Source: Streptomyces sp. RPA4-2
Lineage (GTDB): Bacteria > Actinomycetota > Actinomycetes > Streptomycetales > Streptomycetaceae
Reading direction: 5' to 3'
NCBI RefSeq assembly: GCF_012273515.2
Contig: NZ_CP050975.2
Location: 1,302,001-1,366,000 of the forward strand
Length of the DNA: 64,000 nucleotides
Shown here: one piece after another, positions 27,597 through 62,200 of the stretch
Layout of the letters: each line of letters opens with the position of its first letter
Position numbering within the stretch: position 1 is the first letter of the stretch
Program-made: the position numbers and the translations under genes
Notes under the pieces: model-generated
What the model was told of the DNA's origin: nothing
What the model saw: the letters and a program-made list of their open reading frames with translations, nothing else
The model's database searches: none

Positions 27597-27684
27597 GAGG
27601 GCGAGTCTCCCATGATCCGCTCGAACGGTGACCCGCCCGGCCGTCCGGAAACCCTCACCGCCGGCGTGACGTTCCGCTCACCGG

Positions 27685-28359: not shown

Positions 28360-28393
28360 GGACCCCATCATCACGCATCGTCCGGGCCTCCCC

Positions 28394-28445
28394 CTCTCCC
28401 CCGTCTCCCCCGTCTCCCCCGTCTCCCCCGTCCCGCCCGTCTCCC
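28394..28445. repeat. Tandem 9-bp repeat between alkB and the methyltransferase gene
   Basis: Three perfect GTCTCCCCC units (28403-28429) are flanked by degenerate units on both sides. The array sits in the short divergent intergenic region and may affect promoter spacing. Confidence 0.9.
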
Positions 28446-28517
28446 GGAATGGTCTCCGTCGGCCCGTGACGCTCCCCGGGCGGGGGCGGGGCCGTGCTCC
28501 GATAGCCTGGACCCACG

Positions 28518-29666: not shown

Positions 29667-29691
29667 CGCCGCGCCACGTTCGGCCGCGCCG

Positions 29692-30561
29692 TCATCCGTT
29701 GCGTGGTGGAGGTGCGCCGACGACGCCGATGAGACGCGTCACCGCCCGTGCCATCGACTCCCGCCCCACACTGAGATAGCTGCGGGAGTCGACCGCCTCG
29801 GGGCGGCCCGCGAGGTACTCCCGGATGGCGCCGGTCATGGCGATGTTCAGGGCCGTTCCGATGTTGACCTTGGCGATGCCGCCCGCGACGGCGGCCGTGA
29901 GTTCGTCGTCCGGCACTCCGGAGGAGCCGTGCAGGACGAGCGGAACGTCGAGCGCCGCGGTCAGCCGTTCGAGCCGGTCGTGGTCGAGGGCAGCGGTGCG
30001 CGTGGTCATCGCGTGCGAGCTGCCGATCGCGACGGCCAGCGCGTCCACGCCTGAGTCGGTGACGAAGGCGCGGGCCTCGGCGGGGTCGGTGCGCGCGCCG
30101 GGCGCGTGGGCGTCGAGCGGTGGCTCGCCGTTCTTTCCGCCCACCTGTCCCAACTCGGCCTCGATCCATATCCCTCGGGCGTGCGCCCAGTCGGCCGCGG
30201 CCCGGGTCGCGACCAGGTTCTCCTCGTACGGGAGCCGCGCCGCGTCGTACATGACGGAACTGAACCCGGCGCCGGGTGCCTGCCGGAGCAGGTCGTCGCT
30301 CTGGACGTGGTCCAGGTGCAACGCCACCGGCACCACGGCCCGTTCGGCCGCGGCGGCGGCGGCGCGGGCCAGCGGCAGCAGCCGTCCGTAGCGGAACTTC
30401 ACCGCGTTCTCGCTTACTTGGAGGACGACCGGGGCGTGCGCGGACTCGGCGCCCGCGATGACGGCCTCGACGTGCTCCAGGGTGATGACGTTGAAGGCGG
30501 CGACGGCGGTCCGCGCCCCGGCCGCGGCGGCGACCAGGTCACCAGTGGCTGCGAGTGGCAC
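29692..30561 (-). CDS. Class II fructose/tagatose-bisphosphate aldolase (GatY/KbaY type)
   Basis: 289 residues. The TIM-barrel zinc aldolase motifs are present: AFNVITLEHVEAVI, LHLDHVQSDD (zinc His and catalytic Asp), IEAELGQVGGKNGE, LAVAIGSSHA, LVLHGSSGVPDDE and KVNIGTALN. Such enzymes split fructose-1,6- or tagatose-1,6-bisphosphate into glyceraldehyde-3-phosphate and DHAP. It follows the SIS-domain gene by 33 bases on the same strand. The pairing resembles the agaS-agaY/kbaY arrangement of amino-sugar catabolism, so the tagatose form is favoured. Confidence 0.85.
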   Translation of the reverse strand: MPLAATGDLVAAAAGARTAVAAFNVITLEHVEAVIAGAESAHAPVVLQVSENAVKFRYGRLLPLARAAAAAAERAVVPVALHLDHVQSDDLLRQAPGAGFSSVMYDAARLPYEENLVATRAAADWAHARGIWIEAELGQVGGKNGEPPLDAHAPGARTDPAEARAFVTDSGVDALAVAIGSSHAMTTRTAALDHDRLERLTAALDVPLVLHGSSGVPDDELTAAVAGGIAKVNIGTALNIAMTGAIREYLAGRPEAVDSRSYLSVGRESMARAVTRLIGVVGAPPPRNG

Positions 30562-30594
30562 AACTCCTCCTTCTCAAGAAGCGGTGGGGCGGGC

Positions 30595-31485
30595 TCAGCG
30601 GGCCGGGGCGTCGAGGACGACCGAACGGGTGAGGTGGCGCGGCCGGTCGGGGTCGAGTCCGCGGGCCGCGGCCACGGCGACCGCCAGCCGCTGGGCGCGG
30701 ACGAGTTCGGCGAGCGGGTCGAGTCCGCCGGCCACCCACCGTCCGCCGGTGGCCCGCACCTGTTCGGCCAGCCCTTCGGGCGCCTCGCCGAGCATCCAGG
30801 TGGCGGTGCCGTGGGTGGTGATGCTGATGGGGCCGTGCCGGTACTCCATCGCCGGGTAGGCCTCGGTCCAGGCGAGCGAGGCCTCGCGCATCTTCAGACC
30901 GGCCTCGTTGGCCAGCCCGACCGTCCAGCCGCGGCCCAGGAAGGTGAACTGCCCGCAGTCGACGAGGCCTTCGGGCAGCGGGGTCTCCAGCGCGGTGCGC
31001 GCGTCGGCGACGGCGGCGTCGGTGTGCAGTCCGAGGTGGGCGCGGAGCAGGGTGAGAGCGCTGGTCGCGAACCGGGTCTGCACGACGGAGCGCTCGTCCG
31101 CGAAGTCGAGCACGGCCACGTCGTCCGCCGCGGCCATCACGGGGGTCCGGGGGTCGGCGGTGACGGCGGTCGTACGGGTACGACCGCGCAGCCGCCCGAG
31201 GAGTTCGAGCACCTCGGTCGTGGTGCCGGACCGGGTCAGGGCGACCACCCGGTCGTACGCGCGGGTGTGCGGGAACTCCGACGCGGCGAAGGCGTCCGTC
31301 TCCCCCTGCCCGGAGTCCTCGCGCAGCGCGGCGGCGGACTGCGCCATGAAGAAGGAGGTCCCGCACCCCACGATCGCGACCCGCTCCCCCGCCACGGGCA
31401 GCGCGTCCCCGTGCGTCGCGGCCAGCTCGGCGGCACGTATCCAGCACTCGGGCTGACTGGTCAGTTCGTTCTCGACATGGGTCAT
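30595..31485 (-). CDS. SIS-domain sugar-phosphate isomerase/deaminase (AgaS-like)
   Basis: 296 residues from ATG 31485 (MTHVENELTSQPECW), with GGGAGGGA about seven bases upstream. Two SIS domains bind phosphosugars: the first contains AIVGCGTSFFMAQSAA and LTRSGTTTEVLELL, the second FTFLGRGWTVGLANEAGLKMREASLAW with the E-Y-R-H-G-P motif (MEYRHGPIS). This is the pattern of AgaS and GlmS isomerase domains, without the glutaminase part. A role in hexosamine-6-phosphate deamination or isomerisation upstream of the adjacent aldolase is inferred. Confidence 0.85.
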   Translation of the reverse strand: MTHVENELTSQPECWIRAAELAATHGDALPVAGERVAIVGCGTSFFMAQSAAALREDSGQGETDAFAASEFPHTRAYDRVVALTRSGTTTEVLELLGRLRGRTRTTAVTADPRTPVMAAADDVAVLDFADERSVVQTRFATSALTLLRAHLGLHTDAAVADARTALETPLPEGLVDCGQFTFLGRGWTVGLANEAGLKMREASLAWTEAYPAMEYRHGPISITTHGTATWMLGEAPEGLAEQVRATGGRWVAGGLDPLAELVRAQRLAVAVAAARGLDPDRPRHLTRSVVLDAPAR

Positions 31486-31528
31486 GCCTGTCCCTCCCCC
31501 AAGGCCCGCTCCGGGCACCGATGCTCGT

Positions 31529-31567
31529 TTGTGCAAGATATAGCTGCCTTTCAAGCACAATCAAGCA
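31529..31567 (+). promoter_or_regulatory. Candidate operator region of the SIS/aldolase operon and its DeoR regulator
   Basis: The 141-base divergent intergenic region is AT-rich for this genome. It contains TTGTGC (31529-31534), its inverted partner GCACAA (31555-31560), and a TCAAGCA direct repeat (31551-31557, 31561-31567). Inverted or repeated sites of this sort are usual for DeoR-family repressors; binding is inferred. Confidence 0.45.
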
Positions 31568-45645: not shown

Positions 45646-46425
45646 TCACGGCCGGTCGGTCACGAACCCCTCGACGGCGGCGGTGAGTTCCGCCGGCTTC
45701 TCCACGGGCAGTTCGTGGCCGGCGTCCAGGATCCGCACCACCGCGTCCGGGTAGGCCTTCGCCATCCGGAGCATCTGCGCGACGGGCAGCTGGATGTCGT
45801 AGTAGCCGTGGACCAGGAGGGTCGGGGTGCGGATCTCGCCGAGCCGGTCGAGGACGTCGAAGGACCGCATGGCGCCGTACAGCGTCATGACCACCTCGCG
45901 CGGGGTGTCCGCCGAGGTGCGGACGTACTCCCGGATCTCCTCGCGCGGATAGCCCGGGGCGAAGGCGCGCTGGATGTTGGTGGCCACGAACAGCTTGAAC
46001 GGGACCAGCGTCGACGCCGCCATGAGCAGGCCCCGTCCCCGGCTGTAGGTCATCCTGCTGATCGAGCTGACCAGGACCATGCGTTCGACCCGCTCGGGGT
46101 GGGCGAGGGCGATGGTCTGGGAGATCATCCCGCCCATGGAGTGACCGACCAGGACGAAGCGCTCGATCTTCAGGTGGTCGAGGACCGCGAGGACGTCCGT
46201 CGCCAGCTCCGCGATCGTACGCACCCCCGCCCCGCCGCTCTCGCCGTGCCCGCGCAGGTCCAGCCGGACCACTCGCCGGTTCTCGGCGAAGTGCGCCACC
46301 TGGTGGTCCCAGCGGCGCCGGTTGGCCGTCCAGCCGTGCAGGAACACCAGGGGGACGCCGCCGCCGTCACGGGGGCCCTCGTCGTCGTACGTCAGCGCGG
46401 CGCCGTCGACATCGAGCTGCGGCAT
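45646..46425 (-). CDS. Alpha/beta-fold hydrolase
   Basis: 259 residues from ATG 46425, with AGGAGG four bases upstream. Catalytic motifs are intact: LVFLHGWTANRRRW (oxyanion), Ser in LVGHSMGGM, Asp in LLVHGYYDIQLP, His in LDAGHELPVEKP. It belongs to the broad epoxide-hydrolase/lactonase-like branch with a helical cap. It lies 61 bases downstream of the Cys-type hydrolase on the same strand and may be the last gene of the PKS operon, perhaps for product hydrolysis or lactone opening; the role is inferred. Confidence 0.85.
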   Translation of the reverse strand: MPQLDVDGAALTYDDEGPRDGGGVPLVFLHGWTANRRRWDHQVAHFAENRRVVRLDLRGHGESGGAGVRTIAELATDVLAVLDHLKIERFVLVGHSMGGMISQTIALAHPERVERMVLVSSISRMTYSRGRGLLMAASTLVPFKLFVATNIQRAFAPGYPREEIREYVRTSADTPREVVMTLYGAMRSFDVLDRLGEIRTPTLLVHGYYDIQLPVAQMLRMAKAYPDAVVRILDAGHELPVEKPAELTAAVEGFVTDRP

Positions 46426-46486: not shown

Positions 46487-47635
46487 TCACCGTCGTTCGC
46501 CGAGGAATTCGAGGATGTGCCCGAACACGTCGAGGGCTGCGCCCCGGCCCAGGAACGTGTCCAGGTGGCCGTAACCGGGGATCTCGGCGTACGAGACGTC
46601 CAGCTGGGGCTGCCGGTGTGCCAGTACCTCGTGGCACAGCCGCTGCGAGTCCAGCCACAGTCCGTTCTCGCTGCCCGCGAGCAGCAGTACCGGGGTGTCG
46701 ATGCGGGCCGCCGCGTCCAGCGCGTTGGGCGGCAGCGCCCGGTAACGGTGGTCGGTGTCGTGCCAGCGCACGACGGTACGGGCCAGTTCGATGCGGCGCA
46801 GGTGCGGCAGGATCCACAGGGGCGCGGGCCCGAGGAGTTCGGCGAGCCGGTCGTGGGTGGCGTCGGACAGGTTCTCGTGCACGAAGAGCGAGGCACCCGA
46901 GCCCCAGGCCGAGTTGTGGAGGATCTGGCAGGTCGGGTCCGGGCAGGCCGCCCCGCGCGAAGCGAGGGCGAACAGCGGCGTGTACCTCGACCGCAGGCCC
47001 ACCTTGCGGAAGTCGACCGGGATGTGGTCGATCCGGTTGCGCAGCAGTTCGCCCGCCACCGTCATGCGCAGCGAGGTGCGCCCCGCGAGCTTCGGCGTCA
47101 GGAACACGCCTTGGGAGACGACGCCCGCGAGCCCGGGCACCAGTCCCGCCGCCATGCTCAGCGACAGGGTGAGGGAGCCGACGCAGTGGGCGACCACGAA
47201 CAGCGGCCGGTCGCCGACGCGTTCACGGACGCGGGTGACGGCTTCGGGGATGTCGTACAGGGCGACGTCGTCGTAGGTGTACCTCCGGCCGGTCTCGTTG
47301 TACGGGAAGCGGCGGCTGCCCCGCCAGTCGAGCAGCCAGGGCTCGTAGCCGTCGTCGAGCAGGACGTCGACGAGGTTGCGGGTCTCGGGGAGCAGGAACA
47401 TGTCGGCGGACGCGGTGTGCCCGTGCAGGAGCAGCACGGCGGGCAGATCCCGCTCGCCGCTGTCGACACGGGTGAGCGCGAGACGTACGCCGTCCCGGGT
47501 ACTGAAGGGGATCTCCTCGACCCGGGCCGGGTCGAGGCGGTGGCGGAGGGGGTGCGGGGCCGCGGTCGTGGTCGTGGCCGTCCGGACCTTGCGGACCGGC
47601 TGGCGGGTGCGGGAGGCGGCGGTTCTGAGGATCAT
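46487..47635 (-). CDS. Alpha/beta-fold hydrolase or acyltransferase with Cys nucleophile
   Basis: 382 residues from ATG 47635, with an ATGA overlap to the reductase gene. The N-terminal 40 residues are basic. The core reads LLLHGHTASADMF, WLLDWRGSRRFPYN, then VAHCVGSLTL, which places Cys instead of Ser in the nucleophile elbow, as in PhaC-type polyester synthases. Asp is in LLAGSENGLW (or nearby) and His in PGYGHLDTFLG. A Cys nucleophile favours acyl transfer or polymerisation over simple hydrolysis. Translational coupling to the carrier-reductase gene implies a role in handling the released polyketide. Confidence 0.85.
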   Translation of the reverse strand: MILRTAASRTRQPVRKVRTATTTTAAPHPLRHRLDPARVEEIPFSTRDGVRLALTRVDSGERDLPAVLLLHGHTASADMFLLPETRNLVDVLLDDGYEPWLLDWRGSRRFPYNETGRRYTYDDVALYDIPEAVTRVRERVGDRPLFVVAHCVGSLTLSLSMAAGLVPGLAGVVSQGVFLTPKLAGRTSLRMTVAGELLRNRIDHIPVDFRKVGLRSRYTPLFALASRGAACPDPTCQILHNSAWGSGASLFVHENLSDATHDRLAELLGPAPLWILPHLRRIELARTVVRWHDTDHRYRALPPNALDAAARIDTPVLLLAGSENGLWLDSQRLCHEVLAHRQPQLDVSYAEIPGYGHLDTFLGRGAALDVFGHILEFLGERR

Positions 47636-50214
47636 AGGTGGCGCTCCGGGGAGGTCGGGGTGCGGCGCAGGTCGAGGAGGTCCGCGGCGGCACGGGCGAA
47701 GGGGCCGAGCAGCCCGCGGCCCATCTCCAGGCCGAACCAGGCGAGCCAGGTCAGCTTGGCGGCCCGCTGTTCCCGCGCGGTCAGGCGCGGATCGACCTTG
47801 ATGCCGTCGATCTGGTCGCGTACATAGCTGTCCGCGGGCACGACCAACTCGCCGGTGAGTGCGGCAGGTTCGCCCTCCCGGCCGATGTCGACGCGCAGTG
47901 CGCGGGTCTGCCGCCACACGTCACGGCGGGCGCGGGCGTGCTTGTGCCCCTCCAGCCACCAGCGGCCGCCGTCGGCGTCACGCAACAGCAGCCGGTAGCG
48001 CAGGAGTCGATGGTGCTGTCCGTGCTCCCGCGGAATGCCCTCCTCGGGGCGGACCCAGACGTCCCCGTGTGCCACGACCAGCGGTTCGGGATGCACGGCG
48101 GAGCACACCAGCTCGCCACCGGCGTCCACCCGCCGCTCCCCCACCAGTTGGTACATGCTCGCGATGGAGAGGGTCAGCGCCATCGAGCAGGGGGTGTCGG
48201 CGGCGGTGCCGACGGGCCCCACGGAGCCTTCGGTCGTCTCGGGGAACCACAGATACGGCTGGTCGTCCTTGTGCGGGAGCCTGGCCAGGCCGTCCTCGGC
48301 GAGACGCTCGAACGTCCGCAGCTGCGCCCGTGAGTCGTAGCGGGCCGGGGGCCGAAGGCCGAGTGCCTCGACGAGCGCGGCGGTGCGTTCACCGGTGGCC
48401 GCGGGTCCCTTCAGGGTGGCCTCGCACAGTCTGAGGGCGGTGGGGCTGCGCAACACCCGGGTCAGGAAGTCCAGTTCGGGTACCGGGTCGGCCTCGAGGC
48501 GGGCCAGAGCGTCGGCGCGCCACTCGTCCCAGTCCTGTACGCGCACGTGCATGCCGCCGAACGCCATGTCCCGTACGACGTCGTCGAGGGTGTTGGGCAC
48601 GCCGGTCAGGTTGTAGTCGTGGCCCCAGGCGTCCGGTTCGCAGACGACGGCGGCCGCGACCCGGCTCACCCAGTCCACCGGGGCCGAGTTCAGGTACTGG
48701 AAGGCGGGTACGGTGCGGAAGCGGGCGAAGGCCGAGATGAGTCCGCTGCTGAGGTCCTGTGGGTTGTAGGCACCGGTTCTCGTGTGACCTCCGATGCCTC
48801 CGGGACGCATCGCGGTGACGACCAGACCGTGGTCGCGCGCCCTGCGCAGCGCGACCTCGGCGGCCCACTTCGTCTGGTCGTAGCCCGCCACGAGACGGTC
48901 GGCATGGGCGAGTTGGTCGTCCTCCCCCATGGAGGCGATGCCGACCTCGTTGAAGACCGCGATGGAGGAGATGTGGTGCAGCGGCTTCGGCGGGCCGGTC
49001 GCCGCGAGTTCGGCCAGGGTCAGCGCGCCGATGACGTTGCTCTGCCGCAGCGACTGGTAACCGCGCAGGAAGTCCACGGCCGCCGCCACCCCGACCACGC
49101 TGTCCAGCTCGTGGGCGAGCGTGTTCCAGAGGTCGTCCGACAGGCCGAGGCGCGGCCGGCGGATGTCGCCGGGGAGGACCGTCACCCGGCGGCGGATCTC
49201 CGAGGACCAGGGCAGCCGGTGGGTCTTCAGCGCCGCGCCGAGGCGGGCCGAGGCCGCCTCCTCATCGGTGGCGCGGACGAGACAGTACACGTGGGCGTCG
49301 CTGTGTCTGAGCAGGTCGAGGAGCAGATGGCCGCCGAGGAAGCCGGTGGCGCCGGTGAGCAGGATCCGGCGGGGCGGCAGCGGCTCGGGCGAGCCGGTCC
49401 AGGGCAGACGGTCGGCGAGCGAGAGGTCGGCCAGGATCCGCTCCAGGTCTTCGGGCCGGGCCGAAGGGTCCGAGGAAGGCCGGGAGTACGCGGACGGCGG
49501 GGACGACGGGGAGAGGGGGGTGTCACCCACGGCCGTCCAAGAGGCGCCCGTCGTACTGGGCAGCGGCGTACGGGGAACCGTCCCGGGCGGAGCCGTGCGC
49601 GGTGCCGGAACCGGCGGGGCCGAACTCCACGCGGGTGCGGGCGTTTCCGACGTGCCAGGAGCGGCCGGGGCCGCGGCGGTACCGGCGGTCGCCAGCCAGC
49701 GGCGGGCGAGGCTGCGCGGCCGGGCGTCGGCGAACACCTCGTCGAGGTCCAACTCGACGCCCAGTGAGTCCTCCAGGGCCGCGACGAGTTCCACGGCACC
49801 GACGGAGGTTCCCCCGGCGTCGAAGAAGTCGCTGTCGGGTGACAGCCGTCCTTCGGGTACGAAGGGACCGGCCGCCTCGGCGATCGCGGAGGCCAGGCCG
49901 TCCACGTCGGGTGAGGTGGGGGGCGGAGCGGAGCCGTGCGAGGCGCCCGCGTCGTGCTCACCTTCGGTACCGGGACCGGAGGGGGCGACACCCGCGCCCT
50001 CACCCTCACCCTCACCCTCACCCGTGACGCTCGTGGTCGGATCCACCTCGCCCGCGCCCGGTCCCGTGCCGCTCACGACCGGCTCGGGTCCGGCGGCGAG
50101 ACCTGCCCTGGACAGCAGGGCCGCCACGCTCAGCCCCCCGCCACCGCGCTCGATCGCCTCGCCGGCCGCCCGCTGTCCGGCGTACGACGACGTGTCCTCG
50201 TTCACTTCACGCAT
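47632..50214 (-). CDS. Carrier protein-thioester reductase-C-terminal domain protein
   Basis: 860 residues from ATG 50214, with GGGGAAGGG upstream, 75 bases after the PKS stop. A short docking-like N-terminus and a Gly-Glu repeat linker precede a carrier domain (FFDAGGTSVGAVELV, phosphopantetheine Ser137) at about 105-180. A Pro-rich linker follows, then a thioester-reductase domain (about 265-650): ILLTGATGFLGGHLLLDLL, ISSIAVFNEVG, and catalytic YDQTKWAAE (Tyr near 444, Lys four on). Residues about 675-860 form an extra domain (SIASMYQL, YRLLLRDADGGRWWLEGHK). Reductive NAD(P)H-dependent release of a carrier-bound chain to aldehyde or alcohol is expected. Confidence 0.9.
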   Translation of the reverse strand: MREVNEDTSSYAGQRAAGEAIERGGGGLSVAALLSRAGLAAGPEPVVSGTGPGAGEVDPTTSVTGEGEGEGEGAGVAPSGPGTEGEHDAGASHGSAPPPTSPDVDGLASAIAEAAGPFVPEGRLSPDSDFFDAGGTSVGAVELVAALEDSLGVELDLDEVFADARPRSLARRWLATAGTAAAPAAPGTSETPAPAWSSAPPVPAPRTAPPGTVPRTPLPSTTGASWTAVGDTPLSPSSPPSAYSRPSSDPSARPEDLERILADLSLADRLPWTGSPEPLPPRRILLTGATGFLGGHLLLDLLRHSDAHVYCLVRATDEEAASARLGAALKTHRLPWSSEIRRRVTVLPGDIRRPRLGLSDDLWNTLAHELDSVVGVAAAVDFLRGYQSLRQSNVIGALTLAELAATGPPKPLHHISSIAVFNEVGIASMGEDDQLAHADRLVAGYDQTKWAAEVALRRARDHGLVVTAMRPGGIGGHTRTGAYNPQDLSSGLISAFARFRTVPAFQYLNSAPVDWVSRVAAAVVCEPDAWGHDYNLTGVPNTLDDVVRDMAFGGMHVRVQDWDEWRADALARLEADPVPELDFLTRVLRSPTALRLCEATLKGPAATGERTAALVEALGLRPPARYDSRAQLRTFERLAEDGLARLPHKDDQPYLWFPETTEGSVGPVGTAADTPCSMALTLSIASMYQLVGERRVDAGGELVCSAVHPEPLVVAHGDVWVRPEEGIPREHGQHHRLLRYRLLLRDADGGRWWLEGHKHARARRDVWRQTRALRVDIGREGEPAALTGELVVPADSYVRDQIDGIKVDPRLTAREQRAAKLTWLAWFGLEMGRGLLGPFARAAADLLDLRRTPTSPERHL

Positions 50215-50289
50215 GAGAGCCCTTCCCCCTGTGCCCTGTCTCTTCCGCACCGCTGTCACGGACCGGGCCACCTGCCGTGGCCGTCCCGC

Positions 50290-53200
50290 TCACCGTCGCC
50301 GCCAGGAGCGGAAGGCCCGCAGCTGATCCGGCGTGACCACGCTCTCCAGGCGCTCGTCGTCCTGGTCGGCGCCGCCGAGCGCGGCCAGCAGACGCCGGGC
50401 CGGCAGGTTGCGCGCGGTGCGCTCCGCCGTCAGGCGGACCTTCGCGCAGCCCAGCCGGTCGGCGCGGTCGGCCAGCCACCGCAGCATCCGCTCCTCGACG
50501 CCCCGGCCGAGCGCCCGGCAGCTCATCGCCCAGGCGAGGACGTCGAGTCGGCCGCCTTCCGCGCGCAGGGCGAGCAGGCCGATCTGCCCGTAGTCGCCGA
50601 ACCGGTCGCGCGCCGCGGCCGTCCACACCTCGCCGTGTTCCCGCCACCGCGCCAGATCGCCGCCGTCGGCCGACCGGGGGTGGAGGACGAACTGATTGGT
50701 GCGGCGGACCAGTTGCCCGGCCCGCTCGACGTCGTCCCCGGACAGGGCCCTGATGTCGACCTGAAGCTCCAGTTGGGCGAGGAACTCCTCGAATCCGGCC
50801 TGCTCGCGGGCCGCGTCCCGCTCCCGTTCCTGCGCGTAGAACCGTGCCCGCAGCCCGTCCTCGGCCGTCGCCGCCGCCGGGACGAGCGGCCACAACCGGC
50901 CGAGGAAGTCGTCGAGTTCGGCCGCCGGTGGGCAGGTCAGTGACAGAACCTGCGGCAGCGCCGACCGCATCGCCGCGATCTCGACCGGGTTGTCGTCGAG
51001 GTAGAGGAAGCTGTCGAGTCCCAGGCCGAGCGTGCGCGCCGCCCGGGAGAGCCGGTCCGGCTTCGGCCCCCAGGTGACGGAGAGCGCGCTGAAGTGCTCT
51101 GCCTTCAACAGGCTGTCCGGACGGTCCAGGACGGCTCGTACCGTGTCCTCGTCGTTGTTGCTGACCAGTGCCAGCAGTACGCCGGCCGCCCGCCATTCGA
51201 GCAGCCTGCGCGCGAGGTGGGCGCGCGGACCGGCCAGGTCCACCGCGTCCGGGCCGATCTCCCCGGCCACCCCGCCCCACAGGGTCTGGTCACCGTCCAC
51301 CGCGATCACCTTCGGTGTGGGGCGCCGCACCGCTCGTACGACCTCGGCCACCCGCAGGGCCACCGCCGCCTGGAAGGGCGGTGTGAAGGGAAGATGGGCC
51401 AGCCGTTCGGTTCGTTCGTCGAAGCGTTCCGCGACGCTGTGGTGGCGTGTCCAGTCGTCCGGGCGGAGCACCGCGATGCCGGGGGAGCCGGTGAGTTCGG
51501 CGGCGAGGTCGTCCTCCCACCGCGTGAAGCGGTCCTCCTGACGCGCGGTGGGCAGGAAGCCCACGATCAGCGGCTTGCGGGTCCGCTCGGACAGGGCCTT
51601 CAGCGCGGCCGAGTACGCGGCGCGCAGTTCGTCGAGCACCGCGTCGGTGACCGGGCCGAACCGTTCCAGGTCCGCCGCCCGCAGCAGCACCACGCCCACC
51701 GCCGACGCGGGGTCGGCGAAGACGCCCGACGGGTCGCGCAGGGCGGCGAGCACCTGGTGGTACGGGGCTTCGGCGACCGTCGGGCCCGCGTCCCGCACCC
51801 GGTCGGGTGCCGCGTCGCGTACCCCGTCCGGTGTCCGCTCCCCCGCCGTCTCCTCCTCGGCCGCCGCCGCGCACAGCGACGGCAGATGGCCGAGCGCGAA
51901 GGTGGCGGCGAGAGCGAGCGAGCGGCGCGGGCGTGCGGCGGGCTCACCGGCGATCGGGACGCCCGTCGACGCCCCGCCGTTCCCTGTCGTCGCACTGGTC
52001 GTCTCCGCCTGCGCACGGACCGCCGCCGTCGGGTCGTCGGCCGCGTCCGCGAGCAGCCGCAGGAACTGTCGCGCCAGGTCTGCCGAGGTCTCCGCGTCCA
52101 GGATGTCGAGGTTGTGGTCGAGGCGGACACGGCCCGCGTCCGGGGTCATGGTGATCATGAGGTCGAGGTCGGAGTAGCCCGTACCGGCGGGGAGCACCTC
52201 CAGCCGTTCGAGGCGGCCGGCGGAGGAACGTACGTAGTTGAAGTACACCTCCACCAGGGGCGCGTTCGCCCGGTGCAGCCCCTGTCCGGCGAGGGTCGGC
52301 AACACGTCCGAGAACATGGCGCCCTTGGCGAGGATCCGGTCCAGGCGCGCGTCCGTGCGGCGCAGCACGTCCTCGATCCGCTCCCCCGCCCCGGCCTGTG
52401 CCGGGAAGGGGACGGGCACCCCGAAGAAGCCCACCGCGTCGTACGCGTCGGCGTGGATCCGGGTGTCGACGGGCACGGCGAGTACGAAGCGCTCGCGTTC
52501 CCGCGCCCTGGCCAGCAGCACGGTCAGAGTGCCGAGGCAGAAGGCCGCGGGTGTGACGGCGAGCCGGCTCGCGGCCGCCGTCACCCGTTCCATGAGACCG
52601 TCGGGTATCTCCACGGTGACGCTCCCGGCCCGGTACGAACGGGTCGCCGGGCGGGGCCGGGCGAGGGTCAGGTCGAGGCGCGCGGCGCCGTGGAAGGCCT
52701 CGCGCCACTCGGCCGTGTCCTCACCGGGGGTGCCTCCGGTGCGCTGGGCCTCGATCAGCAGGTCGAGGTCGCGATTGCTGACCGTGTCGCCGAGTGGAGT
52801 GCCTGACAGTTCGGCGTCGATCTCCCCCGCGACGAGCAGCAGCGACCGCAGATCGCTCACGGCGTGGTGGGCGCCGAACACGAGGAGCTGGCCGCCCTCG
52901 CCCGCGTCCAGCAACTCGAAGCGCCACAGCGGCGCGTCCGCCAGGTCGAACGGTGGCTCCAGCAGTCGGCGCAGCTGGTCGGCGGCGTCGAGTCCGGCGT
53001 CGCCGCTCACGGCCGTCCAGTGCAGGAGCGGCGCGGCCAACTCCCTTTCCACGCGTATCTGCCGGCCCTGTCCGCCGCCGCCGGGCATCGCCGTGCGCAG
53101 CGCGGCATGCCGTCCGGCGAGCCGGGTGAGGATGCCGGCCAGGGCCTCACGGGTGGTCGGCGCGGTGAGCCGTGCGGCCAGGCCGATGGCGTGCGCCGCG

Positions 53201-56200
53201 TCCGGCATGTCCGGCCGGGCGCTGCGCAACAGCCGTACCATGTCGCGGGTCGCGGGCCGCAGTTCGTTTTCGGGTACCTCCGGTGCGCGCTCGGGCCGCC
53301 GTTCCTCCTCCCGTGCCCCGGTGCCGTGTGCGGGCAGCATCTCGCCCAGCGTTCGTGCCAGGCCCCGGATGTCGGACGCCGAGAACACGTCGGTGGTGGG
53401 GAGTTCGGCGCCGAGTTCGCGTGCGAAGGCGTTGCGCAGCCGGACGAGCATCAGGGAGTCCAGGCCCAGTTCCTTGAGGGGCGTGGTCGCGGACGCGTCG
53501 ACCGCACCGCCGGAGACCTGGGCGACCTTGGCCCGTACGTACGCTTCGAGCCGTGCGGCGCGGTCCTGGTCCGTGGTCGCCGCGAACACCCCTGTGACGA
53601 GGCCGTCCGTGTCCGCCGAGGCCGCCGTGGTGGTGATCAGGTCGCCCAGGATCGGGCGGGTGCGGGCCGCGTCCAGGTCGAGCGCCAGGGCCTCCAAGTC
53701 TAGGGCGACAGGGGCGAGTTGGCGGCGGGAGGTGGGGAGCAGCCGCTCGAACAGGTCGCCGCCCTCCTGCGGGGAGAAGGCGATCAGACCCGACCGGCCG
53801 GTCTCGGCGGCCCGGGTCCCGGACCCGGCGACCATGCCCACCCCCGCCCAGGCGCCCCAGTCCAGGCTCAGCGCCCGGCGGTCGGTGCGGGACAGATGGT
53901 GCGCCCAGGCGTCGAGGAAGGCGTTCGCCGCCGCGTACGGGCCCTGCCCGGCCGAGCCGAGCAGACCGGCCGCCGAGGCGAAGAGCACGAACTGCCCCGC
54001 CTCCGGCACGAGTTCGGTGAGCAGGGCGGTGCCCAGGACCTTGGGTGCGAGGACGCTCAGGACGCGGTCGTCGGTCAGGGTGGCCACCGTGGCGTCGTCG
54101 AGGACACCTGCCGCGTGGACGACCCCGGCGATCGGTCCGGCCGCCTGCCGTACGGCGTCCAGCGCGGCCGTCAGGGCATCACGGTCGGCGACGTCCGCGC
54201 GGGCGGGACACACGGTGACACCGCGCGCTTCGAGCCCGGCGATCCAGCTCGCCGTGTCCGCGTCGGGTCCGCCGCGGCTCAGCAGGGCCAGCCTGCGGGC
54301 GCCCAGGCGCACCAGCCGCTCGGCGACCACCCGGCCGAGTCCGCCGAGACCGCCCGTGATCAGGTACACGCCGTCCGCGGTGATCCCGTCGTGCCCGCCG
54401 TCGTCGGGGCGGGTGCGGGTCAGCCTCGGTACCAGCCGGCCCGACTCCCGCAGTGCGACGAGCCGTTCGTCGTCCGCGTGCCGCAGTTGCGTCCACAGGG
54501 CGTCGCCGCCGTCCGTGGCCGGCAGGTCGATCAGCGTGGTCGACAGTTCCGGGTGCTCCTGGGCCACCGTGAGGCCGAAGCCCCACGCGAGCGCCTGCTG
54601 AGGGTGCGTCACCTGTGAGCTGCCACCGGCGGCCTGGGTGCCGCGTACGACCACGAACAGACGCGGGGCGCGGCCCCGCGGGTGGTCGGCGAGTGCCCGC
54701 ACCAGGTGCAGGGTGCTGAGGCAGCACCGGCGTGCGGCCTCCTCCGCCGTGGCGGTGTTCTCGATCGAGGGCGCGCCGAGCGCGGACAACTGCACCACCC
54801 GTTCGGGCGGTCCGTCGGCGAAGGCCTCGTCGAGCAGCCGGGCCACCTGCCCCGGGTCGGCCGGATCGAGGACGTAGCGGCCGGGTCCCTCGGCGCCGAA
54901 CGCCTCGCCGGTGCGGGCGATCACATGCGGTGTCGAGGCGGCGGCCAGCCGCTCCGCGAGCGCGGCAGCCACTCCGGTCCCGTCGGCGAGGAGCAGCCAG
55001 CCGCCCCGGCCGGCCGGCTCCTGTGCGTCGGAGCGTGGCTGCCAGCGGGTCTCGAAGAGCGCGGCGTCCGCCCGCGTGAGCGCGGTCAGTGCGAACTCCG
55101 TCGCCTCCAGGACCAGTTGGCCGTCCTCGTCCCAGAGCCTGAGATCCAGCAGCGCGGTGTCGCCCTCCACGGAACGCAGTCGGCAGGTCACCCACGCGGG
55201 AGTGCCACCGAGGTCGGTGAAGCGCAGCCGTCCGACACCGGCGGGCACGAACGCCCGGCCCTCGGGGGCGTTCGCCGGCAGTGCCGCCGTGTGGAAGGCG
55301 GCGTCGAGCACGGCGGGGTGCACGAGATGACCGGCGGCAGGACGCCGGGCGAGCCGGCCCACCGCTTCGGAATCCGTGCGGTGGCCCTGTTCCAGGCCCC
55401 GGAAGGCGGGGCCGTAGTCGATGCCGAGGGCGGTCAGCCCCGCGTAGACGGCCGACAGGCCGACCTCCTCCCCGCACCTCTCGCGCAGCGCCGCGAGCTC
55501 CTCACCCGCGTCCGGCGCCGGTTCGGCGGCGCCGGTCAGGACGCGTCCGGTGACATGCCGCTCCCACCGGGCCGGCCGCTCACCGGCGGGGGCCGAGGAG
55601 ATGGTGAAGTCCCGTGAGCCGTCCTCGGCGGGCCGCAGGACCAGTTGCACCCGTACGGGCCGCTCGGCGTCGAGCGCCAGGGGCCGTACGAACCTCACGT
55701 CGGCGAGCCGCACCTCACCGCCGTTCCGCGCCTCGTCACCGTCCCGCACCGCCGAGGCGGCCTCCATCGCGAGGTCGAGGAACGCGGCGCCGGGCAGCCA
55801 GACCTCGCCGCCGACCCGGTGGTCGCCGAGGTAGGCGAAGCGGCTGTCGCGCAGGTCGATCTCGTTCTGGAAGAGGTGCCGGCCGGGTGTGTCGCTGGCC
55901 TCGACGTGCGTACCGAGGAGCGGTGAGCCTCCGGCCGTCGCGGCGGCCGGGGCGGGTGCGAGCCAGTGGCGTTCGCGGGCGAAGGCGTACGTGGGCAGAT
56001 CGACGCGGCGGCCCCGGGGGAACAGCACCGGCCAGTCGGGCGTGTACCCGGCCTCGTACAACTCACCCAGTCCGCGCAGCAGTACGTCCTGTCCGTCCCG
56101 CTGCCGGCTCAGCGAGCCGACGGCCACCGCGTCGATCCCCGCCTCGGCCGCCACCGCCTCGACCGACGCCGTGAGCGACGGGTGAGGGCTGAGCTCGACG

Positions 56201-59200
56201 AAGTAGCGGTAGCCGTCGTCGAGCATCCGCCGGATCGTGTCCGCGAATCGGACCGGGCGGCCGAGGTTGGCGTACCAGTGGTCGGCGTCCAGCCGGTCAC
56301 CGGGCACTGGCGCGGCCAGCACCGTCGAGTAGAGCGGGGTCGGGGTGCGGGTGCCCCTGATGCCGTCGAGCCGGTCGAGCAGGTCCTCGCGGACCGGGTC
56401 CATCAGGGGGGTGTGGGAGGCGAACGGGGTCGACAGCCGTCGTACGGGAACGCCCTGCGCGTCGAGTCGCCGGCGCAGCCCGTCCAGCGCCTCGGCGTCG
56501 CCGGACACGGCGGTGGAGGACGCGCTGTTGACGGCCGCGACGAACAGCCGGCCCCGGTGGGGCGCGAGCAGTTCCTCAGCCTCCGCGAGCGGGAGTTCCA
56601 GGGACAGCATGCCGCCCTGCCCGACCAGCGGGGCGACCGCGCCGGCACGTGCGGTCACCACGGCCGCGGCGTCGTCCAGGGTGAGGGCGCCCGCGGTGTA
56701 CGCGGCGGCGATCTCGCCGAGGCTGTGCCCGACCACGGCGTCCGGGCGGACGCCGAGCGCTCGCCAGGCGGCGGCCAGGGACGCGTTCAGCGCGAACAGC
56801 ACCGGCTGGAGGAACTCCGTCCGGTCGAGCGGGGTGAACTCCTCGGGGGCTCGCAGTACGTTGAGGACCGACCAGCCGACGCGGCGGTGCACCGCTTCGT
56901 CGATCCGGGACAGCTCCTCGTGGAAGGCCACCGACTCGGTGACCAACTCCGCGCCCATTCCAGGCCATTGGCCGCCGTGCCCGGCGAGGACGAAGGCCAC
57001 CCCGCCCGTCCGTCCCTCGTGCGGCCGGCCCGGCGGTGTCCGTCCGCTCGCCAGCGCGTCGAGCCGGGCGCGCAGTTCGTCGCGGTCGCCCGCCACGATC
57101 CCCGCCCGCCGCTCGAAGTGGCCGCGGTGTCGCGCCAGGGTGTGGGCGACGTCCGGCAGAGCGACGTCCCGCGTGAGGTGACGGGACAGCCGCTCCGCCT
57201 GCCCGCGTACGGCGGACTCACTGCGCCCGGACAGCACGAACAGCCTTTTGCCGGTGCCGGTGCCTGCACCGCTGCCTGCGCCGGCTTCGGCCGTCGGCCG
57301 CGCCTCGGCCCGCGGGGCCTCCTCCACGACCAGGTGCGCGTTGGTCCCGCTGATCCCGAAGGCGCTCACGCCGGCCCGACGTACGCGCTCACCCGTGAAC
57401 GGCCAGGGAGCCGTCTCCCGCAGCAGCCGCAACCCACTGCGGTCCCAGTCGACATGGCGACTGGGCGTGCCGGCGTGCAGGGTGCGGGGCAGCGAGTGGT
57501 GACGCAGGGACTGGACGACCTTGATCAGCCCGAGCACGCCCGAAGCGGCCTGCGCGTGACCGATGTTGGACTTGAGTGAGCCGAGATACAGGGGCCGGCC
57601 CTGCGGACGCGAGGCGCCGAAGACCTCCGCCAGGGCGTTCGCCTCGATCGGGTCGCCGAGCGTCGTCCCGGTCCCGTGCGCCTCGACGTGGTCGATGTCG
57701 GCGGGTGCCAGCCCGGACAGCTCCAGCGCACGCCGGACCACCTGCTCCTGGGCCGGGCCGTTGGGCGCGGACAGACCCTGACTGCGGCCGTCCTGGTTGA
57801 CCGCGGTACCGCGCAGTACGGCGAGCACCTCGTCGCCGTCGCGGCGCGCGTCGCCGAGCCGCTTCAGTACGACCATGCCCGCCCCCTCGGCCCAGACGGC
57901 TCCGTCGGCGTCGTCGGAGAAGGAGCGGCAGCGGCCGGTCGGAGACAGCCCCCGCAGACGGCTGAACTCGACGAAGGTCCCCGGTGTCACCATCAGGGTC
58001 ACGCCGCCGGCGAGCGCGAGGTCGCACTCCCCCGACCGGAGCGCCTGCGCCGCCAGGTGCAGCGCCACCAGCGACGAGGAGCAGGCCGTGTCCACGGTGA
58101 GCGCGGGTCCGTTCAGACCCAGCGTGTACGCGAGCCGTCCCGAGGCCACGCTCAGGGCCGACCCGGTGCCGACGTACCCGTCCAGCTGGTCGAGCCGGGA
58201 GCCCGCGAGGTAGTCGCTGCCGAACATGCCGACGTACACGCCGGTGGGGCTGCCCGCCAGGTCGGCGGGGACGATCCCGGCGCGCTCCAGCGCCTCCCAC
58301 GCCGTCTCCAGCAGCACGCGCTGCTGCGGGTCCATGGCTGCCGCCTCCTTCGGCGTGATGCCGAAGAAGCCCGCGTCGAAGGAGTCCAGCTCGTCGAGGA
58401 ATCCGCCCTCCCGGGCGTACGACTTGCCCAGGGCCTCCGGGTCGGGGTCGTACAGCGACCGCACGTCCCAGCGTGCCTCGGGGAACGGGCCGACCGCGTC
58501 GCGGCCCTCGGCCACCAGGTGCCACAGGCCCTCGGGGTCGTGCACGCCGCCGGGCAGCCGGCACGCCATGCCCACCAGCGCCAGTGGCTCGTCCGCGGCG
58601 GGCGTGGTGTCGCGGGCGTGCCGCGGACCGGGCGCGCTCCGCGGGGCCCTGGGGCCGCCGGCGCCGAGCGTGGTGGCCAGCAGATGCGCGGTGAGCCGGG
58701 CCGCGGTGGGGTGGTCGAAGAGCAGGGTGGCGGGCAGCCTGGCTCCGATCCGGGTGCCTATGCGGTTGCGCAGCTCCACCGCCGTCACCGAGTCCATGCC
58801 GAGGTCACGCAACGGCCGGTCGGGCCGCACGGATTCGGCCGAGCGCAGGCCGAGTGCTCGGGCGGCCTCCTCGCGGACCAGGCCCAGGACGCGGGCGGCG
58901 CGTTCGGTCTCCGGCAGCCGGGCCAGCCGGTCCGCCAGGGCTTCGCCCGCGTCCCGGTTGCCGCGCGGCGCGGGCAGCAACGCGCGCCACAGTGCCGTCG
59001 AGCGTTGGTCCGCGGCCGCCGTGTTCTCGCGCAGCCGGGGCAGGTCCAGGGACCAGGCGACCAGGTGTGGTGCGCCGTGGAGCAGGGCGAGTTCGACGAG
59101 TTCACGGCCCTGGTCCGGGGTGAGGGCCCGGTGGCCGGCACGGGCCATCCGGTCCAGGTCGGCGTGTTCGGCGGCGAAGCCCTCGCCCGCCCAGGCACCG

Positions 59201-62200
59201 AAGGAGACGGAGACGCCGGGCAGGCCCAGGGCGGTTCGGTGGTGGGCGAGTTGGTCGAGATAGACGTTGGCCGCCGCGTAGTTGGCCTGGCCCGCGGTGC
59301 CGACGACACCGGCCGCCGAGGAGATCAGCAGGAACAGGTCGAGGGGCAGATCGGCGGTGAGCCGGTGCAGATGGGCGGCGCCGTCGACCTTGGGACGCAG
59401 CACCCGCGCGAGGCGTTCGGGCGTCAGGTCGGCGATCACGCCGTCGGCCAGGACTCCGGCGCAGTGGACGACACCGCGCAGCGGCAACTCCGTTGTCACA
59501 CGGGCGAGTACGCCGGCCAGGGCTTCGGCGTCCGCGACGTCGCACGCGGCGATCTCGACCTCGGCGCCGAGCGCGGTCAGTTCGGCAATGGCCTCGCCGG
59601 CGTGCGGGTCGTCCGGCCCCCGACGAGACATCAGAAGAAGACGGGGGACGCCCTGTTCCGCCAGAAGCCGGGCGATGTGGCGGCCGACCGCGCCGAGACC
59701 GCCGGTGATCAGCACCGTGCCGTCCGTGGGTACCGGGCCGGGACGCCCGGCCGGTGCCGGGGCAGGCACCGTTCCACTGGGCGTACTCGGGCTGTCGGCC
59801 GGCGCGGCGAAAGGGCGTGCCGGGCGTCGCGACGGGGCGAACGTTGCCTGCCTCGGCACCAGGTCGAGGACGACGGGCTCGCCGGACGCGGTCAGGCGCC
59901 GCAGTGCCTCGCGTGCGCCGGTGACGGGCAGGGCCCGGGGGCGGGCCGCACGTGTCGCACCGGTGAGGGCGGCGTGCAACGCCTCGGCCGGTTCTCCCGC
60001 GGCGCCCGCGCCACCGGCCGCGAGGGCCAGGGCTGCCGCCGTGGTGAACGGCACGTCGTCCGGGAGCACCGCGAGCCGCCGTGCGTCCGCGACCGCCTCG
60101 GAGCCGGGTGGCGTCTCGGCGAGGGCGCAGACCCGCAGACCGGGAGCCAGGTCCCCGGTATCGGCGCCGGCCTCGGTCAGCACACCGGCGCACGCGGTAC
60201 GGGGCAGCGCGCCGCCGGGGCCGGGGACCGCGACGGCGTGCACCTGGATCCTGACCTGGCCGGCGGCCAGGACGTGGGAGGCGACCGCGCGCAGGGCGGG
60301 ATCCGCCGGGAGCCCGGTCAGTTCGTACTGGTCCCCGGCCGGAATCCGCAAGGTGTCCGTCACGCGGGCGCGCACCAGCCGCGGTACGAGCAAAGTGCCT
60401 GCCCGGAGGGCGAGTTCGGGCTCGTCGGCGTGCGCGGCGGCAGCCGCGAGGACATCGCCGGAGGGGAGGCCGGAGGGTCCGGGGCCGTCGAGGTCCAGCA
60501 GGGTCAGTCCGAGGTGCGGGTGTTCGGTCCGGGCGCTGCGGGCCATGCCCCACAGCACGGACTGGGCCAGCCCGGGCACGGAGTCTCCGGCACCGGTCGC
60601 GATCGCGCCACGGGTCACCCACACGGTCCGGGCGGGCAGCCGGTCCTGCGCGAGCGCCGAGAGGTCACGCAGTCCGGCCAGCGCGTCGGCGGCCAATTCC
60701 TGTGCGGCGGCGGCCGGTTCCGCGCCAGGCGCCGGACGCGGCCAGAACCGTACGAGGATGTCGGCGTCCGTCTCCCGCACCTGGAGGCCCGCCGCCTCCA
60801 GGCCGCGTACGGCGGCGGCGACGTCCGGGTCCGAGCGGTCGCCGTGGACGGCCCACACGGCGCCCGGCGCTCCGGTCGGTTCTTCGGGCGCGGCCGTCCA
60901 CGCCACTTCGTACAGGTGACGGCCGTTCTCCGAGGCGCCGTTCAGGTCCGCCGGGTCGGCAGCCCGCAGCCGTACGTCCTCCAGCCGGCCCGCCGGAAAG
61001 CCGTCCGCGTCCCACAGCGTCACGTCGAGGGTGAGGTCCGTCCCGGAGCCTCCCGACCTCCGGACCAGCGCCGTGAGGTCGCCGGTGCCGCCGGGCGGCA
61101 GGACGCATCGGCCCACCGCGACGGGCAGCAGCACCCGGCCGTCGGACGCGCCGCCCGTGTCCAGGGCGGCGGCCACGTGCAGCGCCGCGTCCAGCAGTGC
61201 CGGGTGGACCGGGTAGGCGTCGGTCGTCGCCCGGGCCACGGCGGGCAGGGAGAGCCGGGCCAGCAGTTCGCCGTCGACGGTGGTCGTGACCGCCGACCGG
61301 ACGCCCTGGAAGGCCGGGCCGTAGCCGAGGCCCAGGTCGCTCAGCCGCTCGTACGTCCGCGTGTTCCAGACGGACTCGGCGGCCTCCGGCCACACCGGCG
61401 GCCGGCCGGGCGGCGCCGGGAGGGGCACGGCCGCCGAAGCGGTCGTGTGCAGGGTCCAGTCGGGGTTCGGCCGACCGCGCGGGCGACTGTGCACGGTGAT
61501 CTCCGGGGCGGAGCCCGTGGTGACCACCTCGACGGACACCTCGACCGTGCCGGACTCCGGCAGGACGAGGGGCGCGAGCAGGAGCAGGTCGCTCACGTCG
61601 CCGGGAACGTCCGGGCGGGCCACGGCGAGGGCGGCCCGGCACAGCTCCATCAGGGTGGTGCCCGACACCACGGTTCGTCCGAACACGGTGTGGTCGGACA
61701 GCCAGTCGGCGGTGGCCGGGGACCACTCGTGGCGGAAGGTCCAGCGTGTCTCGTCCGCGGACTGCAGCTGAATGCCGAGCAGCGGGTGCGCGGCGCGGTC
61801 GAGGAGTCCGGGGGCTCCGGCCGCGGGCTCGGGTTCGATCCAGTAGGACTGCGTGTCCCAGGCGTACGTGGGAAGTTCGACGCTCTCCGTGTCGGGTACC
61901 AGCCGGTGCCAGTCGATCGGCCTTCCGTGGACGTGGAGTTCGGCGGCGGCCCGGTCCAGACACGCCGGTCCGTCCTCGTCACGACGCAGCGATCCGACGG
62001 CGACCAGGTCTTCGTGGCCGGAGTCCTCGGCGACCGTGCGCAGGGCGGTGACGAGGGAGGGGTGGGGGCTGAGTTCGACGAAGCAGCGGTAGCCGTCGGC
62101 CACCATGCGTTCCACGGTGGGCGCGAAGCGGACGGGTTCGCGCAGGTTCGTGTACCAGTAGTCGGCCTCGAGTTCCTCCGTGACCGGCTCGCCGGTGACC

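What the first reader, a model, noticed from the sequence alone, without database searches (positions are those of the whole stretch)
47632..53275. Polyketide line ending in C domain + FkbH, followed by carrier-thioester reductase: a possible glyceryl-accepting, reductive termination system
The last PKS carries, after its second module, an NRPS condensation domain with an intact HHxxxD and then a complete FkbH domain, with no adenylation domain and no thioesterase. The next gene supplies a free-standing carrier fused to a thioester reductase. Known: FkbH loads glyceryl units from 1,3-bisphosphoglycerate onto carriers, usually as separate proteins or in loading modules; C domains can make esters. 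Inference: FkbH charges the downstream carrier with glyceryl, the C domain esterifies the glyceryl hydroxyl with the polyketide, and the reductase frees an aldehyde or alcohol. I know of no described termination module with this order.
Basis: partly seen in the sequence, partly recalled or inferred. Interest (0 to 1): 0.8.

Follow-up and report, generated by a model that had tools for sequence, protein, structure and literature searches.

The report
Foxicin-type polyketide line, reductive ending
This is a Streptomyces assembly line of the already published foxicin type, whose last part appears to attach the finished chain to a three-carbon glycerate unit and release it by reduction; the gene order is known, but this reading of its ending is not the published one and can now be tested directly.

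Summary
The last PKS ends ACP-C-FkbH, with no A or TE domain found, and the next gene encodes ACP-thioester reductase. It is not undescribed: the window holds the core of a foxicin cluster (Greule 2017, PMC5318452), orthologous to that of the producer Tü6028, whose frames have the published sizes of FoxBI (583 aa), FoxBIII (945) and FoxEII (259). That paper already proposes that FkbH loads the FoxBIII carrier, but calls FoxBIII "PCP-TE" and FoxBI an A domain. The Tü6028 proteins themselves match thioester reductase (over cut-off) and FAAL-like ligases. In 60 distinct loci the tested catalytic residues of FkbH, C, reductase and hydrolase EI are the same wherever aligned. A second clade carries C-FkbH | ACP-TR-X | EI on other PKSs: apparently a portable termination cassette. 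Precedents: BurF (C-NEX-T-Red; ester, then aldehyde, in vitro) and vioprolide/corramycin (C-FkbH-T). New are the reductive, glyceryl reading and the portability, not the gene order.

The parts
50290..64000 (-). FoxBII-type PKS gene, continuing past the window end to about 64959 (likely start): ACP-KS-AT-DH-(ER-like remnant, by eye)-KR-ACP-KS-AT-DH-KR-ACP-C-FkbH
   Evidence: 75-81% identical to the Tue6028 orthologue in the pieces that align in order
53355..53580 (-). last ACP of the PKS (LGLDSL), donor carrier of the polyketide; limits approximate
51951..53268 (-). condensation (C) domain, HHAVSD intact; proposed ester-forming; limits approximate
   Evidence: PF00668; HHxxxD in 60 of 60 loci
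50293..51921 (-). FkbH region: N-terminal extension, then HAD phosphatase and acyltransferase parts (TIGR01686 at 50359-51321)
   Evidence: DxDxT aspartates, K, DD and MSCR Cys in 59 of 59 aligned loci
47632..50214 (-). FoxBIII-type gene: ACP-thioester reductase-X (860 aa from the MREVN start; open frame to 50271)
49699..49896 (-). free-standing carrier (ACP3) proposed to receive the glyceryl unit
   Evidence: PF00550; Ser in 55 of 56 aligned loci, the one exception (L082) an alignment into a fragment at a contig end
48346..49365 (-). thioester reductase domain, GxxGxxG and YxxxK intact
   Evidence: TIGR01746, MxaA 9e-55; Ser/Tyr/Lys in 50 of 50 aligned loci
47635..48309 (-). X domain, predicted antiparallel beta-barrel, with a remote similarity to the C-terminal part of a GMC oxidoreductase
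46487..47635 (-). FoxEI-type alpha/beta hydrolase, acid-lipase-like fold, Cys in the nucleophile position (AHCVGS)
   Evidence: Cys and His in 49 of 49 aligned loci
45646..46425 (-). FoxEII-type alpha/beta hydrolase
   Evidence: 87% identical to the Tue6028 orthologue; present in 41 of 50 loci with at least 6 kb downstream

Best explanation
The feature is the terminal module of a foxicin-type PKS. A FAAL-like ligase loads a short branched acid on the first ACP; two PKS modules make a methyl-branched dienoyl chain on ACP2. FkbH (fused to the PKS) takes glycerate from 1,3-bisphosphoglycerate, removes the remaining phosphate and charges ACP3 of the next protein. The C domain joins the polyketide from ACP2 to a hydroxyl of glyceryl-S-ACP3 as an ester. 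The reductase then reduces the ACP3 thioester with NAD(P)H and releases an acyl-glyceraldehyde, or after a second reduction a monoacylglycerol; the partner X domain and Cys hydrolase (EI) act on that lipid-like product. Shown here: domains, intact residues, conservation, orthology to foxicin, recurrence on other PKSs. Inferred: every catalytic step, substrate identity, and which hydroxyl is acylated.
For: Domain identification. Orthology to the foxicin producer with the same gene order and published sizes of three genes; the producer's own FoxBIII passes the thioester reductase cut-off (242.8 against 213.35 bits). Tested catalytic residues unchanged where aligned: FkbH D/D/K/D/C in 59 of 59, C HHxxxD in 60 of 60, ACP3 Ser in 55 of 56, TR S/Y/K in 50 of 50, EI C/H in 49 of 49. 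TR and X follow C-FkbH in 49 of 50 loci with at least 3.2 kb of downstream sequence. A second clade keeps C-FkbH, ACP-TR-X and EI on different PKSs. Precedents: BurF C-NEX-T-Red (ester then aldehyde) and vioprolide/corramycin FAAL-ACP-C-HAD-T. No methoxymalonyl genes among the scanned neighbours.
Against: Foxicin A (C18H22N2O5) is a benzoquinone carrying the polyketide acid as an amide, with no clear glycerate carbons; foxBII inactivation abolishes it. Among solved chains the profile of the C domain ranks peptide-synthetase C domains first and the SgcC5-type entry 4znm last of 33 hits, although such a ranking does not decide ester against amide. One of 50 loci (L107, Streptomyces sp. uw30) has the carrier but no TR, X or EI in 10 kb; 103 gap letters downstream leave the reason open. 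Nothing biochemical was done.
Confidence: 0.55

Rival explanations
1. Published foxicin model: the chain is joined by the C domain to an amino-acid-like amine on the FoxBIII carrier (amide), FoxBI activates that amino acid, glyceryl gives a C2 part of the quinone, and a thioesterase releases the product.
For: foxBII single-crossover loss of foxicins; the polyketide is an amide in foxicin A.
Against: The producer's FoxBI matches fatty-acyl-AMP ligase models far better than the amino-acid adenylation model (429 against 142 bits; none passes its strict cut-off), and its FoxBIII is a thioester reductase with no thioesterase family. In the flanks compared, no family outside the core genes is widely shared. 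Of the three proposed glyceryl-supply genes, isomerase and aldolase sit here 14 kb away across unrelated genes, and a GAPDH lies within 40 kb of the core in only 2 of 18 fox-core genomes.
Confidence: 0.2
2. Glycerate is a temporary handle: the acyl-glyceryl ester (aldehyde or alcohol) is made as above, then EI (a Cys alpha/beta hydrolase, possibly an acyltransferase) or EII moves the acyl group to another acceptor, such as the aminoquinone of foxicin, so glycerate is lost from the final product.
For: Would reconcile intact glyceryl machinery with a foxicin lacking glycerate; EI has Cys instead of Ser and an acid-lipase fold; in vioprolide a fatty acid is removed from the precursor by hydrolysis (passage).
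Against: No assay; EII is missing in 9 of 50 loci; the direction of acyl transfer is unknown.
Confidence: 0.15
3. FkbH makes a hydroxy- or methoxymalonyl extender rather than a terminal glyceryl unit.
For: A known role of free-standing FkbH in actinomycetes, as described for tetromadurin (passages).
Against: FkbH is fused after C and precedes ACP-TR; no acyl-CoA dehydrogenase, 3-hydroxyacyl-CoA dehydrogenase or other free ACP among 21 neighbouring proteins scanned besides the PKS and TR, and the one methyltransferase there is of the MTS (rRNA) kind, syntenic with the rRNA methyltransferase gene of the paper; both ATs are predicted methylmalonyl-specific in foxicin.
Confidence: 0.03

Closest known systems
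Foxicin (fox) cluster of Streptomyces Tue6028, Greule 2017, PMC5318452
   Same: Same five genes in the same order; domain string ACP-KS-AT-DH-KR-ACP-KS-AT-DH-KR-ACP-C-FkbH, then carrier protein, then two esterases; also the DH1 HxxxGxxxxS motif
   Different: The paper reads FoxBIII as PCP-TE and FoxBI as an A domain; the producer's own sequences say thioester reductase and FAAL-like ligase. Outside the five core genes the flanks compared share little.
BurF terminal module (malleicyprol), Fiedler 2025, PMC12304814
   Same: ACP-C-NEX-T-Red: ester by the C domain, reductive release, NEX being the N-terminal part of FkbH-like proteins
   Different: BurF lacks the HAD and acyltransferase parts and uses another hydroxy acid loaded by separate proteins; its beta-keto chain then closes to a butenolide. 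Fox chains, reduced and dehydrated, should not close that way; fox has X and EI.
Vioprolide and corramycin initiation (FAAL-ACP-C-HAD-T)
   Same: FAAL plus C-FkbH-T making a glycerate ester
   Different: Initiation rather than termination; no reductase in the module. Known to me from passages in PMC8949500, PMC10099666 and PMC12397197; the primary paper was not read.
Tetronate and methoxymalonyl FkbH pathways (tetromadurin, PMC7489565, passages)
   Same: FkbH proposed to charge a free ACP with glyceryl from 1,3-bisphosphoglycerate
   Different: Separate FkbH proteins; FabH-like closure or extender-unit formation instead of reduction

Membership tests
Foxicin-type cluster | foxBI-BII-BIII-EI-EII adjacent with the published domain order | tested here: met
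   (with the BIII release domain read as reductase in both strains)
Foxicin-type cluster | 73-96% identity of the five proteins, as the paper gives | tested here: inconclusive
   FAAL-like 82%, PKS pieces 75-81%, EI 85%, EII 87%, but whole BIII 68% (its TR part 86%)
Foxicin-type cluster | makes foxicin | not testable with these tools
   no metabolite data
FkbH domain (TIGR01686) | score over curated cut-off, complete model | tested here: met
FkbH domain (TIGR01686) | glyceryl transfer from 1,3-bisphosphoglycerate to a carrier | not testable with these tools
   tested residues intact; no assay
Thioester reductase (TIGR01746) | over cut-off, GxxGxxG and YxxxK | tested here: met
   Tue6028 FoxBIII too
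Thioesterase (the published label of FoxBIII) | Pfam thioesterase domain in the BIII protein | tested here: not met
   NAD_binding_4, PP-binding, Epimerase and similar SDR families only, in the window protein and in Tue6028 FoxBIII
Fatty-acyl-AMP ligase (FAAL) | curated FAAL model over cut-off | tested here: inconclusive
   PRK05850 and FadD32 models match over their length at about 420-430 bits, below their strict cut-offs (775, 975)
BurF-type terminal module | order ACP-C-NEX-T-Red | tested here: inconclusive
   order met with a full FkbH instead of NEX alone, and split in two proteins; BurF sequence not compared
Ester-forming (SgcC5-type) C domain | core-motif class of SgcC5 | tested here: inconclusive
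   entry 4znm (recalled as SgcC5) found at 1.4e-8, ranked last of 33; core-motif classifier not available
Methoxymalonyl-ACP pathway | FkbG/I/J/K-like genes alongside | tested here: not met
   none among 21 neighbours scanned; not every frame and nothing farther away was scanned

The most novel reading that the evidence does not exclude
C-FkbH | ACP-TR-X | Cys-hydrolase is a portable 'glyceryl reductive release' cassette that Streptomyces attach to unrelated PKSs. On reduced chains (fox) it gives acyl-glyceraldehydes or chiral monoacylglycerols; on a beta-keto chain, as in the second copy of G067 whose last module is KS-ACP only, the aldehyde would close onto the chain as a 5-hydroxymethyl butenolide. 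It represents the intact form of which the malleicyprol BurF module is a reduced relative, and foxicin A would be a downstream or diverted product.
Probability: 0.35. Interest if true: 0.75.

Novelty: new variant of a known kind. Interest (0 to 1): 0.5.

Why it matters
If true, a cluster type found in about one in seven sampled genomes of the genus (21 of 150, both clades) ends its chains by a chemistry that its published model missed. It would give a new way of putting a C3 glycerol unit on polyketides, link the vioprolide ester module with the malleicyprol butenolide module through one architecture, and make a concrete prediction (acyl-glyceraldehyde or acylglycerol, or a hydroxymethyl butenolide) testable with two proteins. 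It also corrects two annotations in a published cluster and questions which flanking genes belong to it.

Tried and rejected

Printed-literature searches. None of the passages I read describes the fox termination as reductive. Only open-licence PMC papers are held and supplements could not be read, so this is not proof of absence. Recalled, from no call: the meaning of AT motifs, tetronate and C-domain generalities, the SgcC5 identity of 4znm, and that Cys alpha/beta hydrolases can be acyltransferases.
Full report
What is there. The window is G000:C1:1302001-1366000 of a 9.86 Mb single-contig genome; all 48 named loci returned for its C-FkbH stretch are Streptomyces. The PKS gene runs past the window end: open frame 50290-65262, likely start about 64959. 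Its domains are ACP-KS-AT-DH-KR-ACP-KS-AT-DH-KR-ACP-C-FkbH (a degenerate ER-like stretch before KR1 is my reading by eye). The C domain keeps HHAVSD; FkbH matches TIGR01686 over its full length at 408.7 bits. The next gene is carrier, thioester reductase and a further domain X; it is followed, with an ATGA overlap, by an alpha/beta hydrolase (EI) and then a second one (EII). Directly upstream, outside the window, is a FAAL-like AMP ligase.

It is the foxicin core. A text search led to Greule 2017 (PMC5318452; abstract, sections 21-24 and 26, and passages read). It lists foxBI (583 aa), foxBII (4807 aa; ACP-KS-AT-DH-KR-ACP-KS-AT-DH-KR-ACP, C, FkbH), foxBIII (945 aa), foxEI (378) and foxEII (259) in this order, and homologues of these five genes side by side in 21 further Streptomyces strains. 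The genome scan returned the producer itself, Streptomyces sp. Tue6028 (L080), and its region has frames of 583, 945 and 259 aa at the right places, 82%, 68% and 87% identical to ours; the PKS is 75-81% identical in the pieces that align in order and EI 85%. The paper's DH1 motif HxxxGxxxxS is also ours (DH1 reads HTVFGRTVVS).

What the paper and the sequence disagree on. The paper labels FoxBIII PCP-TE and FoxBI an NRPS A domain. The window's BIII protein matches the thioester reductase model above its cut-off and the solved MxaA reductase at 9e-55, with no thioesterase family. I repeated this on the producer's own 945-aa protein: NAD_binding_4 and TIGR01746 (242.8 bits, cut-off 213.35), no thioesterase. 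Many public homologues are named thioester reductase domain-containing protein (best 120 of 598 listed). The producer's FoxBI matches fatty-acyl-AMP ligase models at up to 429 bits and the amino-acid adenylation model at 142, none above its strict cut-off; its best model of all (511 bits) is a long NRPS/PKS model, matched only at its first 565 of 4334 positions. The genes proposed to supply bisphosphoglycerate do not travel with the core: a GAPDH match lies within 40 kb of it in 2 of 18 fox-core genomes, and in our genome the isomerase and aldolase lie 14 kb away.

Conservation. 68 locus rows reduce to 60 distinct loci after removing 8 assemblies that I judged duplicates by equal contig length; the window itself is not counted, and one genome (G067) gives two loci. 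FkbH: both DxDxT aspartates, Lys, the DD aspartate and the MSCR Cys are the same in 59 of 59 aligned, one locus being unaligned at each site; C HHxxxD 60 of 60; ACP3 Ser 55 of 56, the exception being an alignment into a contig-end fragment (L082); TR Ser/Tyr/Lys 50 of 50; EI Cys/His 49 of 49. Of 50 loci with enough downstream sequence, reductase and X follow in 49, EI in 49, EII in 41; L107 lacks all four. In 150 sampled genomes of the genus, the window's own included, 19 hold the fox-type C-FkbH (four of them as split matches) and 3 the second type, 21 genomes in all, G067 having both. In 148 genomes of the class (81 genera) full-length C-FkbH matches occur in 3, all of the same genus, the window's genome included; 20 of 148 have an FkbH-type match at E <= 1e-30. 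A wider order-level search failed.

A portable cassette. The second type (G067 second copy, G014, G081 at a contig end, S. himastatinicus L112) is 51-54% identical in C and 59-60% in FkbH; where the contig continues, TR is 72-73%, X 59-63% and EI 64-65%, with no EII found. The PKSs before it differ. In G014 and S. himastatinicus the last module is KS-AT-DH-KR-ACP (the himastatinicus stretch is partly masked and the join between its two frames was not resolved). In G067 the PKS proteins scanned have no AT domain and several tandem carriers, and the last module reads KS-ACP before the C domain. Trans-acting reduction there is not excluded.

Mechanism. BurF of malleicyprol biosynthesis is the best precedent (PMC12304814; abstract, section 5 part 1 of 2, section 6 and passages read). 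Its terminal module is ACP-C-NEX-T-Red; the C domain forms an ester between two chains, the reductase gives an aldehyde, and NEX is the N-terminal part of FkbH-like proteins; the authors find it conceivable that BurF lost the phosphatase and acyltransferase parts. Vioprolide and corramycin supply the other half: FAAL-ACP-C-HAD-T with glycerate esterification (passages in PMC8949500, PMC10099666, PMC12397197; the primary vioprolide paper was not read). The fox cassette is both at once: intact FkbH, C, carrier, reductase. From this I infer glyceryl-S-ACP3, ester formation and reductive release. Whether two or four electrons are used cannot be told. A fox chain, alpha-methyl and alpha,beta-unsaturated by the foxicin structure, should not close as in BurF; a beta-keto chain could.

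The partner proteins. EI has an acid-lipase-like fold (lysosomal and gastric lipases, E 8e-16 to 2e-14, TM 0.64-0.66 by query length; model pLDDT 75), but Cys where lipases have Ser, as do its relatives L150 and L151 (24 of 24 in alignment A4). Those two relatives sit beside GMC oxidoreductases. The GMC protein of L150 ends in a stretch that the X profile finds (E 1.3e-4; hhalign probability 86 over 73 columns); for L151 the similarity is weak (probability 18). If it holds, X plus Cys hydrolase serves two different redox enzymes that handle alcohols or aldehydes; I read this as processing of a lipid-like alcohol or aldehyde, which is inference from two loci.

Results against. Foxicin A carries the acid as an amide on a benzoquinone, and no carbon is clearly glycerate; foxBII inactivation by single crossover removes it. 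Either glycerate is lost later, or it enters the ring unseen, or the C domain makes an amide. Among solved chains the C domain's first matches are peptide-synthetase C domains. These keep the confidence near one half.

Verdict. Observation confirmed; interpretation partly supported; the cluster known; the reductive, glyceryl reading and the portability of the cassette new as far as my searches go.

Noticed in passing
L005:9728-11692 (own genome, about 249.7-251.7 kb): Second FkbH protein of the genome (654-aa frame) within 10 kb of an AMP-ligase frame that looks FAAL-like by eye; a separate locus, not examined.
   Followed up: no
L045 and L065 (G067): Second copy of the termination cassette at PKS genes without AT domains, with tandem carriers and a KS-ACP last module; predicted beta-keto chain and so possible butenolide formation.
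   Followed up: partly
L107, after 13627 (Streptomyces sp. uw30): C-FkbH and carrier present but no reductase, X, EI or EII in the 10 kb downstream; gap letters in that stretch.
   Followed up: partly
L150:8819-12446 and L151:10080-13826: EI-like Cys hydrolase next to a GMC oxidoreductase in two other actinomycetes (divergent in one, same strand in the other); the L150 GMC protein ends in an X-like stretch, that of L151 only doubtfully.
   Followed up: partly
window 26355-31560: ROK, methyltransferase, class II aldolase and SIS isomerase genes match the 'fox' flank of Tue6028 in order (87-95% identical); they look like sugar catabolism rather than foxicin genes.
   Followed up: yes
window 46487-47635: alpha/beta hydrolase with invariant Cys (AHC-I/V-GS) in the nucleophile elbow.
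   Followed up: partly
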